41,946 nt of DNA from Catenulispora pinistramenti. Lineage in GTDB: Bacteria > Actinomycetota > Actinomycetes > Streptomycetales > Catenulisporaceae. Every line of letters starts with the position of its first letter. Positions within the stretch are counted from its first letter, which is position 1. A model generated the notes under the pieces. It was not told the DNA's origin, made no database searches, and worked only from the letters and a program-made list of their open reading frames with translations. The DNA is taken from contig NZ_JAAFYZ010000074.1 in the NCBI RefSeq assembly GCF_018274385.1, forward strand, positions 1-41,946. Direction: 5' to 3'. The translations under genes and the position numbers were made by a program. Below, in pieces: positions 22,377-28,475 of the stretch.

Positions 22377-23021
22377 ATGAGTGACAGGCTGGTGTGGATC
22401 GACTGCGAGATGACCGGGCTCGACCTGGACAAGGACGCCCTGATCGAGGTGGCCGTGCTGGTCACGGACTCCGAGCTGAACGTCCTGGGGGACGGGATCG
22501 ACGTGGTGATCGCGCCACCGGCCGAGGACCTGCCGGGCCTGCTGGCCGGCATGGTGGACGTGGTGCGCGAGATGCACACCGCCTCGGGCCTGCTGGAGGA
22601 GCTGTCCGGCGGCATCCCGATGGCCCAGGCCCAGGAGCGGGTCCTGGCCTACGTGCGCGAACACGTGCCGGAGGCCGGCAAGGCGCAGCTGGCCGGCAAC
22701 TCGGTCGGCACCGACCGCGGCTTCCTGGCCCGCGACATGCCCGAGCTCGAACAGCACCTGCACTACCGGATCGTGGACGTCTCCTCGATCAAGGAGCTGG
22801 CCCGCCGCTGGTACCCGCGGGTCTACTTCAACGCCCCGAAGAAGACCGGCAACCACCGCGCGCTGGGCGACATCCGCGACTCGATCGCCGAGCTGCGCTA
22901 CTACCGGGACGCGATCTTCGTCCCGCACCCCGGCCCGGACTCGGAGACCGCCCGCACCCTCGCGGCCCGGATCGAGGCCGGACCGGCCGCGGCCGGAGAC
23001 CAGGCCGGTACCGGGGCCTGA
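22377..23021 (+). CDS. orn: Oligoribonuclease
   Basis: This 214-residue DEDDh 3'-5' exonuclease degrades nano-RNAs and pGpG, and is essential in many bacteria. The catalytic residues are visible in WIDCEMTGLD (N-terminus), NSVGTDRGFLARDMP (~108-122) and NHRALGDIRDS (~162-172). The C-terminus carries a typical Ala/Gly-rich extension. TAGGGT lies 6 bases before the ATG, so transcription may be leaderless. It lies just upstream of tRNA-His, an arrangement also known in Streptomyces. Confidence 0.95.
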   Translation: MSDRLVWIDCEMTGLDLDKDALIEVAVLVTDSELNVLGDGIDVVIAPPAEDLPGLLAGMVDVVREMHTASGLLEELSGGIPMAQAQERVLAYVREHVPEAGKAQLAGNSVGTDRGFLARDMPELEQHLHYRIVDVSSIKELARRWYPRVYFNAPKKTGNHRALGDIRDSIAELRYYRDAIFVPHPGPDSETARTLAARIEAGPAAAGDQAGTGA

Positions 23022-23149
23022 CCTCGCGATCGGGCACCGCCGGGCCCGATGGAAAGGGTCGTGCGGAGCACCGCCGGATCCATGTATGCTTGGCGGTGCC
23101 AGCGCGGCGCGGGGCCCCGGGAACGGGAGTTCTGCGACGTGGGCAACAT

Positions 23150-23223
23150 GGTGGGCGTAGCTCAGTTGGTAGAGTCCTGGGTTGTGATCCCAGTTGTCGC
23201 GGGTTCGAGCCCCGTCGCTCACC
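23150..23223 (+). tRNA. tRNA-His (anticodon GTG)
   Basis: A full cloverleaf can be folded. The acceptor stem GTGGGCG pairs with CGCTCAC (one G-U), the D-arm is AGCTCAGTTGGTAGAG, and the anticodon stem is CTGGG/CCCAG around TTGTGAT with GTG at 23184-23186. The T-arm is CGGGTTCGAGCCCCG. The extra G at 23150 opposite C 23223 is the G-1:C73 pair unique to tRNA-His. The CCA end is not encoded. Confidence 0.97.
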
Positions 23224-23311
23224 CTCCATGGAGCGGTCTCTGATCTCGTCAATCGAGAACAGGGGCCGCTTTCGTCTTTACTGCGATCTTCCGCTCAGTA
23301 CACTGCCCGCC

Positions 23312-24634
23312 ATGGGCGAGTACGGCGAGAACCTGGACGACCTGACCGCGAAGTGCGTCCACTGCGGGTTCTGCCTCCCGGCGTGTCCCACCTACGCGCT
23401 CACCGGTGACGAGAACGACTCCCCGCGAGGCCGCATCCATCTGATGCGCCAGGTGCTCGAAGGCCAGGCCGAACTCGACGACGCGGTCGCCGAGCACATC
23501 GACTCCTGCCTCGGCTGCCTGTCCTGCGTCAGCGCCTGCCCCTCCGGCGTCCAGTACGACCGGATCATCGAGGAGTTCCGGCCGGAGGTGGAGGAGGCTT
23601 ACGCCGAACACCGCGGCGACCGCGCCTTCCGGGAACTGGTCTTCGGCCTGTTCCCGCACCCGGCCCGGCTGCGGGTGGCGGCGGTGGGCGCGGTGGCGTA
23701 CCGCCGGACGGGTGGTGCGGCGCTGGTCCGTTCCAGTGGACTTCTGCGCCGCTTCCCGAAGCTGGCCGCCATGGAGGCGCTGATGCCGGCCACCACGCTG
23801 CGCAAGGCGTGGAGTTCGCTGCCGGCCAGCACCTTGCCGGACGGGGAACCGCGCCGCACCGTCGCCATGGTCGCAGGGTGCGTGCAACGGGTGTTCTTCG
23901 GCGACGTCAACGCCGCGACCGCGCGGGTGCTGCGCGCCGAGGGCTGCCGGGTCGTGGTGCCGGACCAAGGCTGCTGCGGCGCGCTGTCGCTGCACGCCGG
24001 CCGGGACCAGGAGGCCAAGCGCTATGCCCGCAAGCTCATCGACTCCTTCCGGCACCCGGCGCAGCTCGGTGCGGTACCGCTGAGCGACCTGGACGCGGTG
24101 GTGGTCAACGTCGCCGGCTGCGGCTCCACTCTGAAGCAGTACGGCGAACTGCTGGCCGACGACCCCGAGTACGCCGAACCGGCCGCGGAGTTCGCGGCGA
24201 AGGTCCGCGACGTCTCCGAGGTCCTGGCCGACCTCGATCCGATCGCCGAGCGGCATCCGGTCCGGGCGCGCGTCGCCTACCACGACGCCTGCCACCTGGC
24301 GCACGGCCAGGGCGTCCGGGCGCAGCCGCGCAAGCTGCTCGGCGACGTGCCGGGCCTTGAGGTGGCCGAACCGGCCGAGGCGGCGTTCTGCTGCGGCTCG
24401 GCGGGTGTCCACAACCTGGTCCGGCCGGAGGCGGCCGAGGAGTTGGGACGCCGCAAGGCCGAGCGGATCCGGGCCACGAATCCTGATCTGGTGGCCACCG
24501 GGAACCCCGGCTGCCTGCTGCAGATCCAGCGGTATCTCGGGGACGCCACGCCGGTGGTGCATCCGATCGAGATCATCGACGCCTCGATCAGGGGGTTGAC
24601 GCTCAATCCGCGGCGGCGGCGCGCCGGTTCCTGA
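23312..24634 (+). CDS. glcF: Glycolate oxidase-type iron-sulphur subunit
   Basis: This 440-residue protein has two 4Fe-4S motifs (CVHCGFCLPACP at ~15-26 and CLGCLSCVSACP at ~67-78). Two cysteine-rich CCG domains follow (DQGCCGALSLHAG and AAFCCGSAGVHNL), as in GlcF and LutA/HdrB-type electron-transfer subunits. It would pass electrons from the GlcD/GlcE flavins to the quinone pool. No other Fe-S oxidoreductase is nearby, so it is the natural partner of glcDE although it lies on the opposite strand, separated by regulator, cupin, orn and tRNA-His. Its 3' end is 3 bp from the next, convergent gene. Confidence 0.9.
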   Translation: MGEYGENLDDLTAKCVHCGFCLPACPTYALTGDENDSPRGRIHLMRQVLEGQAELDDAVAEHIDSCLGCLSCVSACPSGVQYDRIIEEFRPEVEEAYAEHRGDRAFRELVFGLFPHPARLRVAAVGAVAYRRTGGAALVRSSGLLRRFPKLAAMEALMPATTLRKAWSSLPASTLPDGEPRRTVAMVAGCVQRVFFGDVNAATARVLRAEGCRVVVPDQGCCGALSLHAGRDQEAKRYARKLIDSFRHPAQLGAVPLSDLDAVVVNVAGCGSTLKQYGELLADDPEYAEPAAEFAAKVRDVSEVLADLDPIAERHPVRARVAYHDACHLAHGQGVRAQPRKLLGDVPGLEVAEPAEAAFCCGSAGVHNLVRPEAAEELGRRKAERIRATNPDLVATGNPGCLLQIQRYLGDATPVVHPIEIIDASIRGLTLNPRRRRAGS

Positions 24635-25811: not shown

Positions 25812-28475
25812 ATGTGCGGTATCGCGGGTGTCTTCGGGGCCCATGACGAGGCCATGCTCAAGCGGATGGGCGACGCCATCGCCCACCGGGGGCCCGACGG
25901 CGAGGGCGTCTATAGCGACGGGGCGGAGGTCGGCTATGCCCACCGCCGCCTGGCCATCATCGACCGGGCGCACGGCGACCAGCCGTTCGTCACCGAGGAC
26001 GGCCGCTATGCCGCCGTCTATAACGGCGAGGTCTACAACTACCGGGAGCTGATGGCCGAGCTGGAAGCCCTCGGCCGCACCTTCCGCACGGTCTGCGACA
26101 CCGAAGTGGTGGTCCAGGCCTTCGCCGAGTGGGGCGAGGCGGCCTTCGACCGCTTCAACGGCATGTTCGCCATCGCCATCCACGACACCGAGACCGGCAA
26201 GAGCTACCTGGCCCGCGACCACTTCGGCATCAAGCCGCTCTACCTGGCCTCGGTCACCGGCGCCGACGACAGCCACCGGCTGGTCTTCGGCTCGGAGATC
26301 AAGGCGATCCTGGCCTCGGGCCTGGTCGAGGCGGCCCCGGACGACGTCACGCTCTATCGCTACCTGCGCTTCCGCATCCATGAGGACTCCGACCGCACCT
26401 TCTTCGCCGGCATCGAGAAGGTCCGCCCGGGCGAGCTGGTCGTCCTGGACGGCACCGGCGTCCAGCGCCGGATGTTCACCACGCTGCGTGAGGACCTGCT
26501 GGCCGACGGCCCGCGCTCGCCGTTCACCAAGGACACCACCAAGGAGTTCAAGGAGCGGCTGACCGAGTCGATCCGGATGCGCCTGGTCGGTGAGGTCCCG
26601 GTGGGCACGGCGCTCTCCGGCGGCCTGGACTCCTCCACGGTGGTCGCGGTCATCAGCAAGCTGATGAAGCAGCACGCGAAGGACGTGGAGTCGGTCGGCT
26701 CGGAGCAGAACAGCTTCTCCGCGGTCTTCCCCGGCAGCGTCAACGACGAGGAGCGCTACGTCGACGCCGTCCTGGCCAAGGCTGACGGTCCCGTGAACTG
26801 CCACAAGATCCACCCGAACCCGGACGAGTTCCTGGAAGACCTCGCCGACTTCGTGCGGACCCAGGAGGAGCCGACCATCTCCACCGGCCCCTACGCGCAG
26901 TACAAGGTGATGCAGGAGGCCACCAAGCACGTCACCGTCCTGCTCGACGGGCAGGGCGCGGACGAGATGATGGCCGGGTACCTGCCGTACTACTTCGTCT
27001 ACCTGCGCCAGCTGCGCAAGGAGAAGCAGTACGGGAAGCTGATGCGCGAGGTGGTCTCCTCCACCGACGTGCTCTCCCGCTACGGCAAGCAGGTGGTCCG
27101 CGGCAAGATCGGCCTGGACCAGCCGGTGGACATCCGGCAGATGCTGGACAAGGGCTTCGCCAAGCAGCACAAGGGCGAGACGTTCAGCCCGGTGCCGGAC
27201 GACCTGAGGGCCCGGCTGGTCGAGGACATCTTCGCCAACTCGCTGCCCTCGCTGCTGCGTTACGAGGACCGCAACACCATGCGGTTCTCGCTGGAGGGCC
27301 GCGTGCCCTTCCTGGACTTCAACCTGGTGCGCTACCTGTTCACCCTGGAGCCCGAGGCGATCATCAAGGGCGGCTGGAACAAGAAGATCCTGCGCGACTC
27401 GGTGCGCGGGCTGCTGCCGGACCAGATCGTCGACCGCCGCAACAAGATCGGCTTCACGACGCCGGAGCGCGAGTGGTTCCTGCGGATCAAGAACCACGTG
27501 CACACGGTCTTCCGCTCGGACTCCTTCGGTTCCCGGCCCTACTTCGACCAGGCCTCGGTGCTGCGCGCGTTCGAGGAGTTCATCGCCGGCAAGAACAGCG
27601 ACACGATGCTGTTCTGGCGGATGCTCAACGTCGAGCTCTGGCTGCGCACCTTCGTCGACGCCCCCGGTACCCACGTGGACTCCACGACCTCGGCGGTCAA
27701 GGAGTACTTCGCGGCCAACCCCGGCAAGCAGATCGCGATCAGCACCGCCTCCAGCGGCCAGGTGCTCCGCTTCCCGATCCAGACCGACGCCTTCGCCAAG
27801 GGCGACGACTTCCACACCAAGATCTCCGAGTACGGCGCGGAGTTCGCCGCCAAGGCGGCCGAGTCCGACGACCACGCCGAGGCGCTGAACAGCCCCTGGT
27901 TCCTGGCGGTCAGCGAGAAGGTGGTCGCGATCTCCCAGGGCCGCAGCTACTTCCTGTGGGAGATCAAGCCCTCCTTCGCGGCCCGCAAGCTGCAGAAGTT
28001 CGTGGTCCGCACCCCGGCCGGCATCGGCCTGGGCTCCCCGGAGACCATGCAGCTGGCGATCCAGGAGGCCGGCCTGCCGCGCATCGTCGCGGCCTCCGCG
28101 GCCGGCGCCGTCGGCAAGGTCGTCGGCCGCAAGGGCCTGTTCTACCAGCTGGCCGGACCCGCGGTGCGGGCCATCGACGGCCCGACGCAGTACTCGCTGT
28201 ACCCGTCGAACGTCTCGGCGAAGCTGGCCCCGGCGCAGCCCGACAAGGCCGCCGCCGAGCTGGCCGACCGGATCCGCAAGGTGCTGCCCGCCACGGCCGC
28301 CCAGACCTTCCAGGGCGTGGCCATCATCGACGCCAACGACCTGGGCTGCAACATCCTCGGGCAGGCCACCACGGTCGGCGAGGACAAGATCGCGGAGATG
28401 TTCGAGGACAACCCGCTGGGGCAGGGCGCGCAGCGCACGCCGCTGGCCGTGGTGGTGCTCCCGAAGCAGAAGTAG
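25812..28475 (+). CDS. asnB: Asparagine synthase (glutamine-hydrolysing) fused to a CofE-like C-terminal domain
   Basis: 887 residues, about 250-270 longer than usual AsnB. The class II glutaminase domain starts at Cys2 (MCGIAGVFG), with AHRGPDGEG and AVYNGEVYNYREL. The synthetase domain carries the pyrophosphate loop LSGGLDSS (S269-S275) and the conserved LEGRVPFLD, and ends near FVDAP (~617). Residues ~630-887 resemble F420-0:L-glutamate ligase: LRFPIQTDAFAKGDDF, SEKVVAISQGRSYF, KPSFAARKL, RTPAGIGLGSPETM and DNPLGQGAQRTPLAVVV. ATG 25812 puts the nucleophile Cys at position 2; GAGGAG lies 12 bases upstream and TATAGG near 25755. The frame opens earlier (25662), but no such start could make an active glutaminase. 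Whether the product makes asparagine or another amide is open. Confidence 0.88.
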   Translation: MCGIAGVFGAHDEAMLKRMGDAIAHRGPDGEGVYSDGAEVGYAHRRLAIIDRAHGDQPFVTEDGRYAAVYNGEVYNYRELMAELEALGRTFRTVCDTEVVVQAFAEWGEAAFDRFNGMFAIAIHDTETGKSYLARDHFGIKPLYLASVTGADDSHRLVFGSEIKAILASGLVEAAPDDVTLYRYLRFRIHEDSDRTFFAGIEKVRPGELVVLDGTGVQRRMFTTLREDLLADGPRSPFTKDTTKEFKERLTESIRMRLVGEVPVGTALSGGLDSSTVVAVISKLMKQHAKDVESVGSEQNSFSAVFPGSVNDEERYVDAVLAKADGPVNCHKIHPNPDEFLEDLADFVRTQEEPTISTGPYAQYKVMQEATKHVTVLLDGQGADEMMAGYLPYYFVYLRQLRKEKQYGKLMREVVSSTDVLSRYGKQVVRGKIGLDQPVDIRQMLDKGFAKQHKGETFSPVPDDLRARLVEDIFANSLPSLLRYEDRNTMRFSLEGRVPFLDFNLVRYLFTLEPEAIIKGGWNKKILRDSVRGLLPDQIVDRRNKIGFTTPEREWFLRIKNHVHTVFRSDSFGSRPYFDQASVLRAFEEFIAGKNSDTMLFWRMLNVELWLRTFVDAPGTHVDSTTSAVKEYFAANPGKQIAISTASSGQVLRFPIQTDAFAKGDDFHTKISEYGAEFAAKAAESDDHAEALNSPWFLAVSEKVVAISQGRSYFLWEIKPSFAARKLQKFVVRTPAGIGLGSPETMQLAIQEAGLPRIVAASAAGAVGKVVGRKGLFYQLAGPAVRAIDGPTQYSLYPSNVSAKLAPAQPDKAAAELADRIRKVLPATAAQTFQGVAIIDANDLGCNILGQATTVGEDKIAEMFEDNPLGQGAQRTPLAVVVLPKQK

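What the first reader, a model, noticed from the sequence alone, without database searches (positions are those of the whole stretch)
25812..28475. AsnB fused to an F420-0:glutamate ligase (CofE)-like domain
The asnB product is 887 residues, with complete glutaminase and synthetase domains up to ~617. It then carries ~260 residues whose motifs (SEKVVAISQGR, KPSFAARKL, GIGLGSPETM, DNPLGQGAQRTP) resemble CofE-type F420-0:gamma-glutamyl ligases. One enzyme family makes an amide from glutamine nitrogen, the other a gamma-glutamyl amide bond. A single polypeptide with both suggests an undescribed amidation or glutamylation reaction, perhaps on a cofactor. The AsnB part is certain from motifs; the CofE identity is by pattern recognition; the joint function is inference.
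Basis: partly seen in the sequence, partly recalled or inferred. Interest (0 to 1): 0.8.

Follow-up and report, generated by a model that had tools for sequence, protein, structure and literature searches.

The report
AsnB fused to a CofE-like ligase
A soil actinomycete carries one protein that joins an asparagine-synthetase-type amidating enzyme to a relative of the enzyme that puts glutamate tails on cofactor F420; the pairing recurs in distant bacteria, and its surroundings hint at a role in building the cell wall rather than in making a cofactor.

Summary
Window 25812-28475 (+) encodes one 887-residue protein: a complete AsnB-type amidotransferase (to ~617), then a CofE-like domain. It is no frameshift artefact: the fusion is in all 10 sampled genomes of the genus (Catenulispora) and recurs in Roizmanbacteria, Saccharibacteria, Actinomadura and other actinobacteria; in five more genomes the two genes are separate neighbours. 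The linked AsnBs group together in a tree. The domain belongs to a divergent CofE-like subfamily, and the genome has its own FbiB, FolC and an ordinary AsnB, so a cofactor role is not supported. Context hints at peptidoglycan: some CofE-like genes sit beside murJ, mraZ/ftsI or a MurT-GatD protein, and the genus lacks MurT (0/10) while other genera of its family have it (4/4). But three of five fused genomes outside the genus have MurT too, and many CofE-like genes occur without AsnB. Best reading: a two-site amidating/ligating enzyme acting on a cell-wall precursor; substrate and reaction are inferred. New variant of a known kind, testable.

The parts
25812..28475 (+). AsnB-CofE-like fusion gene, 887 aa
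   Evidence: single open frame; in 10 of 10 sampled genomes of the genus and in other phyla
25815..25817 (+). Cys2, N-terminal nucleophile of the glutaminase site once Met1 is removed
   Evidence: MCG[IV]AG start in the fused relatives that could be read at this end; role recalled for class II amidotransferases
25941..26315 (+). glutaminase domain GATase_7, residues 44-168
   Evidence: PF13537 147.7 bits
26544..27647 (+). Asn_synthase domain, residues 245-612, with SGGLDSS loop
   Evidence: PF00733 229.4 bits
26952..26954 (+). Gln381 of LDGQGADE, aligned with Glu of E. coli GEGSDE
   Evidence: phmmer alignment to 1ct9; Q or N in 15 of 15 CofE-linked AsnBs and in 6 of 25 unlinked
27252..27275 (+). 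LLRYEDRN, signature of CofE-linked AsnBs (residues 481-488)
   Evidence: ED[RK]N in 15 of 15 linked and 0 of 25 unlinked AsnBs
27663..27785 (+). linker and start of the C-terminal part, residues 618-658
   Evidence: weakly conserved between relatives
27786..28472 (+). CofE-like ligase domain, residues 659-887 (Pfam match 659-824)
   Evidence: PF01996, fold match to CofE, hhalign probability 96.6
28176..28178 (+). Asp789 (IDGPT), aligned with the Asp of CofE GIDASN
   Evidence: hhalign; kept, by eye, in every row that covers it; metal role recalled
28329..28331 (+). Asp840 (DAND), aligned with the first Asp of CofE TDTNGR
   Evidence: hhalign; kept, by eye, in every row that covers it; metal role recalled

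Best explanation
The protein is a genuine two-enzyme fusion. Shown: an AsnB-type glutamine amidotransferase that groups with other CofE-linked AsnBs, followed by a domain with the CofE fold, of a subfamily that does not look like the F420 enzyme. Inferred mechanism: the N-terminal glutaminase site splits Gln into Glu and ammonia; the AsnB synthetase site adenylates a carboxylate and amidates it; the CofE-like site phosphorylates a carboxylate with GTP and Mn2+ and joins it to an amine (an amino acid, or ammonia from the glutaminase). Inferred substrate: a peptidoglycan precursor, whose stem holds a gamma-linked D-glutamate with a free alpha-carboxylate and a diamino acid, rather than free aspartate or a cofactor. 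Most likely the fusion amidates or extends the stem peptide, a job done in other Gram-positives by MurT-GatD and AsnB/LtsA. My estimates: real CofE-fold fusion 0.97; both sites catalytically active 0.75; cell-wall precursor as substrate 0.42; D-Glu alpha-carboxyl amidation in particular 0.22.
For: Domains and fold. Recurrent pairing: fusions in the genus (10 of 10), Roizmanbacteria L019, Saccharibacteria L020 and a further Patescibacteria genome L052, Actinomadura L021, and actinobacterial L098, L099, L103; separate adjacent genes, asnB then cofE-like, in L057, L063, L071, L118 (Patescibacteria) and L100 (Actinomycetota). The 15 linked AsnBs lie on one side of one branch against 27 unlinked ones (support 76/95; 74% of 200 bootstrap trees; shuffled mean 12.5 changes, 0 of 500 shuffles as low), although their hosts are Actinomycetota and candidate-phyla bacteria. 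They share ED[RK]N and Q/N at the E. coli Glu348 position, unlike the ordinary AsnB L149 of the same genome. Cell-wall context: MurJ 3-80 nt from the CofE-like gene in L110, L112, L113, L122, L123 and from the fusion in L022, and 1.1-2.1 kb away in L115 and L111, i.e. 8 of 55 loci (with MurJ queries taken from L113 and L022; six of the eight confirmed by Pfam); mraZ 109-280 nt downstream and ftsI further on in L053, L054; a protein with MurT and GatD parts 291 nt upstream in L107. MurT_C is absent from 10 of 10 genomes of the genus but present in 4 of 4 genomes of the other genera of the family and in 16 of the 17 genomes of the order that were tested; in Patescibacteria 0 of 24 carriers of the CofE-like gene have it against 6 of 24 non-carriers (Fisher p 0.022). 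Precedents: AsnB homologues amidate mDAP in peptidoglycan (PMC8554201, section 18 and passages); a COG1478 member can replace FolC in Chlamydia (PMC1971073, passage); the CofE mechanism is modelled on MurD and FPGS (PMC8498797, PMC10861534, passages).
Against: Outside the genus, 3 of the 5 fused actinobacterial genomes tested have MurT as well (G480, G062, G063; not G492, G755), so the two are not strict alternatives. 14 of 24 Patescibacteria carriers of the CofE-like gene have no AsnB found (genome completeness not told), and the two are not significantly associated there (10/24 v 5/24, p 0.21). Absence of MurT in the genus is one evolutionary event; comparison groups are not corrected for relatedness, and the Patescibacteria non-carriers were simply 24 of the 355. 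In the CofE-like tree the AsnB-linked rows do not form one group (6 changes). Neighbours in the window itself (Fe-S/CCG protein, GMC oxidoreductase, several ORFs without Pfam match) say nothing about the cell wall; in Roizmanbacteria they are nadE and, by eye, glutamine synthetase and gatCAB. The MurJ genes in the six close pairs are convergent, so not co-transcribed, and all but L022 belong to distant CofE-like members. Other members sit beside an aminotransferase or an Orn/Lys/Arg decarboxylase, or are fused to adenylate kinase, so the subfamily may have several functions. TIGR01536 (asparagine synthase) scores above its cut-off.
Confidence: 0.42

Rival explanations
1. It is an asparagine synthetase whose CofE-like domain is regulatory or structural, or uses the glutamate released by the glutaminase in a side reaction.
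For: TIGR01536 above cut-off; in G060, G061 and G307 the fusion is the only PF00733 match at E 1e-10; Roizmanbacteria neighbourhood of nadE and, by eye, glutamine synthetase and gatCAB.
Against: The own genome has an ordinary AsnB with GESADE; linked AsnBs carry Q or N where E. coli AsnB has Glu348, a residue recalled as essential for the synthetase step; the CofE core Asps are kept, by eye, in every family row that covers them.
Confidence: 0.24
2. An amidated small peptide is the product: the CofE-like site makes a gamma-glutamyl or other dipeptide and the AsnB site amidates it, as in N-acetylglutaminylglutamine amide osmolyte synthesis (pathway recalled).
For: TIGR03104 (N-acetylglutaminylglutamine amidotransferase) scores 319 bits, but below its cut-off of 570.1.
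Against: Solo CofE-like genes without AsnB; part of the context is cell-wall. The partner gene of that pathway was not searched for.
Confidence: 0.15
3. Polyglutamylation of F420 or folate by the CofE-like domain, with AsnB supplying glutamate.
For: CofE homology; COG1478 member FolC2 stands in for FolC in Chlamydia (PMC1971073, passage).
Against: Own genome has FbiB and FolC; FolC is as frequent in Patescibacteria with as without the CofE-like gene (5 of 24 each) and is present in G061, G219 and G426, where asnB and cofE-like are linked; no NCBIfam CofE model matches the domain, and seven relatives reach only 15.8-34.9 bits with TIGR01916 against 180.65.
Confidence: 0.07
4. Accidental or assembly-made fusion of two neighbouring genes.
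For: In the MAG L022/G063 the gene has one in-frame TAG.
Against: Fusion in frame in 10 of 10 genomes of the genus and in two separate groups over distant bacteria.
Confidence: 0.02

Closest known systems
CofE / FbiB N-terminal domain (F420-0:gamma-glutamyl ligase, PF01996, COG1478)
   Same: fold, the GDD...EKVVA..QGR...PS..A region, two core Asp positions
   Different: segment GIGLGSPETM...FY..AG..IDGPT stands in the place of the CofE middle part and the C-terminal half is shorter (alignment); no match to the CofE equivalog models
AsnB asparagine synthetase (TIGR01536) and AsnB/LtsA peptidoglycan mDAP amidotransferases
   Same: class II glutaminase + PP-loop synthetase architecture; AsnB relatives that amidate mDAP are published (PMC8554201)
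   Different: groups apart from the 27 unlinked AsnBs sampled, Q/N at the Glu348 position and ED[RK]N; carries a second ligase domain; not compared with LtsA reference sequences here
MurT-GatD lipid II isoglutaminyl synthase
   Same: pairing of a glutaminase with a ligase that activates a carboxylate (inference); one shared neighbourhood and a partly complementary distribution
   Different: both halves are from other families; the fusion protein has no MurT or GatD domain match
FolC2 (Chlamydia CT611, COG1478 standing in for FolC)
   Same: CofE homologue with a non-F420 job (PMC1971073)
   Different: FolC is already present in the own genome and in several linked genomes; CT611 itself was not compared
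N-acetylglutaminylglutamine amidotransferase (TIGR03104)
   Same: AsnB-like enzyme working beside a peptide-forming enzyme (recalled)
   Different: score 319 bits, cut-off 570.1; no CofE domain

Membership tests
CofE (F420-0:L-glutamate ligase) | PF01996 similarity and CofE fold | tested here: met
   28.2 bits for the domain alone, cut-off 25 (23.6 in the whole protein); Z 12.0 to 2phn
CofE (F420-0:L-glutamate ligase) | match to the CofE equivalog models (TIGR01916 and others) | tested here: not met
   no NCBIfam match at E 1 for the domain; seven relatives 15.8-34.9 bits, cut-off 180.65
CofE (F420-0:L-glutamate ligase) | the F420 ligase of its genome | tested here: inconclusive
   a better CofE/FbiB exists at G000:C101, 179 bits, which makes a second one needless but does not exclude it
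CofE (F420-0:L-glutamate ligase) | GTP-dependent glutamate ligation to F420-0 | not testable with these tools
   needs an enzyme assay
AsnB asparagine synthetase | TIGR01536 above cut-off, Cys2 and SGGLDSS motifs | tested here: met
   410.3 bits, cut-off 267.1; motifs
AsnB asparagine synthetase | Glu at the E. coli Glu348 position (role recalled) | tested here: not met
   Gln381
AsnB asparagine synthetase | makes Asn from Asp | not testable with these tools
   needs an assay
LtsA-type mDAP-amidating AsnB | falls in the clade of proven mDAP amidotransferases | not tested
   no reference sequences were compared
MurT-GatD | MurT_C (PF08353) and GATase_3 domains | tested here: not met
   not among the five Pfam families of the protein; MurT_C not found in the genome
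FolC2 | stands in for a missing FolC | tested here: not met
   FolC 336.2 bits in the own genome

The most novel reading that the evidence does not exclude
AsnB-CofE is a second, unrelated solution to amidating (or aminoacylating) the D-glutamate of the peptidoglycan stem: the CofE-like site phosphorylates the alpha-carboxylate of gamma-linked D-Glu with GTP and the AsnB glutaminase supplies the nitrogen, replacing MurT-GatD in Catenulispora and in part of the Patescibacteria.
Probability: 0.2. Interest if true: 0.85.

Novelty: new variant of a known kind. Interest (0 to 1): 0.6.

Why it matters
It shows a recurrent pair (AsnB + CofE-like), apparently spread by horizontal transfer, in Actinomycetota and candidate-phyla bacteria, and a CofE-like subfamily for which I found no assigned function. 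If it acts on peptidoglycan, it would explain how Catenulispora, and perhaps many Patescibacteria, do without MurT, and would give a fold known from cofactor tailing a role in cell-wall amidation. Such proteins are probably annotated simply as asparagine synthase or F420 ligase (not checked), which would mislead metabolic models.

Tried and rejected
Folate role: the FolC search showed no complementary pattern. Obligate pairing of the two genes in Patescibacteria: not found (14 of 24 carriers lack a detected AsnB). Gln at the Glu348 position as a unique mark: rejected, 5 of 25 unlinked AsnBs also have Gln and one has Asn; only ED[RK]N is exclusive in this sample. Neighbourhood of L102 and L104: the ORF beside the CofE-like gene is a sigma-70 factor, no use. 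Full-length structure: mean pLDDT 49.9, not used, so nothing is said about how the two halves sit together. PDB sequence search with the domain found one chance-level hit (E 0.17) and with its profile none. Plasmid collection: no match; phages and E. coli genomes were not searched. Literature: three searches combining F420 / gamma-glutamyl ligase with asparagine synth(ase) or with candidate phyla radiation found no paper in the held library; papers on Glu348 were not found, so that role is recalled, as is the metal role of the CofE Asps (one search did not show it). The Patescibacteria and Actinomycetota scans are samples (379 and 396 genomes); at most 6 first-look candidates were scored per genome, so hits may be under-counted. 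L101 (G504) reaches the contig end and could not be classed. Rows dropped: in the AsnB residue table two long-branch rows (L184, L185), 40 of 42 remain; in the CofE-like tree three truncated rows, 48 of 51 remain. MurT test: 17 of the 46 order genomes were included, cut only to fit the 80-handle limit and before any result was seen.
Full report
WHAT IS THERE. The frame 25812-28475 (+) is open over 887 codons. Residues 1 to about 617 are a complete AsnB: GATase_7, Asn_synthase and TIGR01536, all above their cut-offs, with MCG at the start and SGGLDSS. Residues 659-887 are a CofE-like domain: PF01996 at 28.2 bits when scanned alone (cut-off 25) and 23.6 bits inside the whole protein. A template-free model of the domain (pLDDT 78.9) matches A. 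fulgidus CofE (2phn, 2g9i, 7uld) and nothing else clearly: Foldseek E 2.0e-6 to 5.8e-5, the next hit 2.4; Z 11.2-12.0, the next 4.5. A profile of 51 relatives aligned to two true CofEs gives hhalign probability 96.6, E 5.2e-10; two core Asp residues of CofE (GIDASN, TDTNGR) fall on IDGPT (Asp789) and DAND (Asp840). That these bind the metals is recalled, not read in a call.

WHERE IT OCCURS. The host is a Catenulispora: the domain is 99% identical to C. pinisilvae NH11 (L014). Of 60 relatives, 10 of 10 genomes of the genus (own genome included) have it and 0 of 50 others; in all 10 the AsnB motifs are in frame with it. The genome collection scan adds Roizmanbacteria (L019, 900 aa), Saccharibacteria (L020, 881 aa), Actinomadura roseirufa (L021, 903 aa) and a Micromonosporaceae MAG (L022; one in-frame TAG). 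A profile scan of 379 Patescibacteria genomes finds 24 with the CofE-like gene: 2 fused (L020, L052), 4 directly downstream of a separate asnB (L057, L063, L071, L118; in L063 asnB is split into two frames), 18 with no asnB recognised in the stretch fetched, some of which are cut by contig ends. Of 396 Actinomycetota genomes 25 have it (a lower bound): fused in the own genome, L098, L099 and L103, adjacent in L100, one undecided (L101), 19 with no asnB recognised in the stretch fetched.

THE PAIR. A tree of 42 AsnB proteins puts all 15 CofE-linked ones on one side of one branch (76/95; 74% of 200 bootstrap trees; 0 of 500 shuffles as low), while the hosts are Actinomycetota and candidate-phyla bacteria. 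Two fused groups appear: that of the window (7 rows), whose sister L057 has separate adjacent genes, and L098/L099/L103, whose sister L100 has separate adjacent genes. So on this tree the genes fused at least twice, or fused once and split twice. The CofE-like tree recovers the same two fused groups (99/98 each) and the L057 sister (88/90), but leaves L100 unplaced and does not unite all AsnB-linked rows (6 changes). Linked AsnBs share ED[RK]N (15 of 15 against 0 of 25) and Q or N at the position of E. coli Glu348 (15 of 15 against 6 of 25). The same genome holds an ordinary AsnB (L149, GESADE) and a third, weak PF00733 protein.

PROBABLY NOT A COFACTOR ENZYME. The genome has its own FbiB-type CofE and FolC. 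The domain matches no NCBIfam model. In Patescibacteria FolC is equally common with and without the CofE-like gene (5 of 24 each, over the cut-off). A precedent for a CofE homologue with another job is FolC2 of Chlamydia (PMC1971073, passage).

THE CELL-WALL LEAD. MurJ lies 3-80 nt from the CofE-like gene in L110, L112, L113, L122, L123 and from the fusion in L022, and 1.1-2.1 kb away in L115 and L111: 8 of 55 loci (six confirmed by Pfam). In L053 and L054 it precedes mraZ and ftsI. In L107 it follows a protein with MurT and GatD parts. MurT_C is missing from 10 of 10 genomes of the genus, present in 4 of 4 genomes of other genera of the family and in 16 of 17 tested genomes of the order. Among the 24 other actinobacterial carriers it is present in 3, among 23 non-carriers in 11 (8 of 9 of the same class, 3 of 14 of the rest). 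Against the idea, fused G062, G063 and G480 have it; fused G492 and G755 do not. In Patescibacteria 0 of 24 carriers have it, nor does G060 with the Roizmanbacteria fusion, and 6 of 24 of the non-carriers tested do. Fisher p values are 2.5e-7 (order), 0.011 (other actinobacteria) and 0.022 (Patescibacteria), but relatedness is not corrected for, and the loss in the genus is one event. AsnB homologues that amidate mDAP in peptidoglycan are published (PMC8554201, section 18 and passages); murT-gatD homologues are described in Streptomyces coelicolor, with the function taken from S. aureus (PMC6001138, passages); and the CofE mechanism is modelled on MurD and FPGS (PMC10861534, PMC8498797, passages). 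The genus Actinospica, sister to Catenulispora in 16S trees, is told apart from it by a set of chemical traits that includes the wall diamino acid (PMC9308616, passages); whether it is among the unnamed family genomes tested is not known, and no amidation data for Catenulispora were found.

MECHANISM. Most likely: the glutaminase releases ammonia from Gln; the AsnB site amidates one carboxylate through an adenylate; the CofE-like site activates another (or the same) with GTP and Mn2+ and joins it to an amine. The peptidoglycan stem, with gamma-linked D-Glu and a diamino acid, offers such carboxylates and resembles the gamma-glutamyl chain that CofE handles. All of this paragraph is inference. 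The full-length model was too poor to judge the arrangement of the sites.

AGAINST. MurT and the fusion coexist in 3 of 5 fused genomes outside the genus; solo CofE-like genes abound without a detected AsnB (14 of 24 Patescibacteria carriers); the window's own neighbours are uninformative; other CofE-like members sit beside aminotransferase or decarboxylase genes or are fused to adenylate kinase.

VERDICT. Observation confirmed; CofE identity confirmed as homology and fold; cofactor role not supported; reaction open, with a testable cell-wall lead.

Noticed in passing
L127:3-1847 (-) and L128 start (G063, Micromonosporaceae MAG): A second CofE-like C-terminus on a 615-aa frame without any Pfam match at E 0.001; it may continue on L128, whose following genes look like purK and purE (by eye).
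   Followed up: partly
L066:6076-7488 (+), L068:3-1241 (-): CofE-like domain fused to adenylate kinase (Pfam) inside a ribosomal-protein/secY run (by eye); in L068 the CofE-like gene lies next to an adenylate-kinase-like gene (by eye).
   Followed up: partly
L057:5997-7670 (-): The asnB beside the CofE-like gene starts MSAIVG and lacks the nucleophile Cys and the RGPDG stretch, so its glutaminase looks degenerate or its start was misread.
   Followed up: no
L107:3823-6048 (+): MurT and GatD parts in one 741-aa protein, upstream of a CofE-like gene and followed by a carbamate-kinase-like gene (the latter by eye).
   Followed up: partly
L063:6640-8471 (-): asnB upstream of the CofE-like gene is split into two frames (198 and 412 aa).
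   Followed up: no
L116, L117, L125 and L108: Distant CofE-like genes sit next to a class-III aminotransferase (Pfam for L116, by eye for L117 and L125) and an Orn/Lys/Arg decarboxylase (L108, Pfam), hinting at other roles.
   Followed up: partly
window 22394-24634 (+): 746-aa protein with 4Fe-4S and CCG (cysteine-rich) domains upstream of the fusion gene.
   Followed up: no
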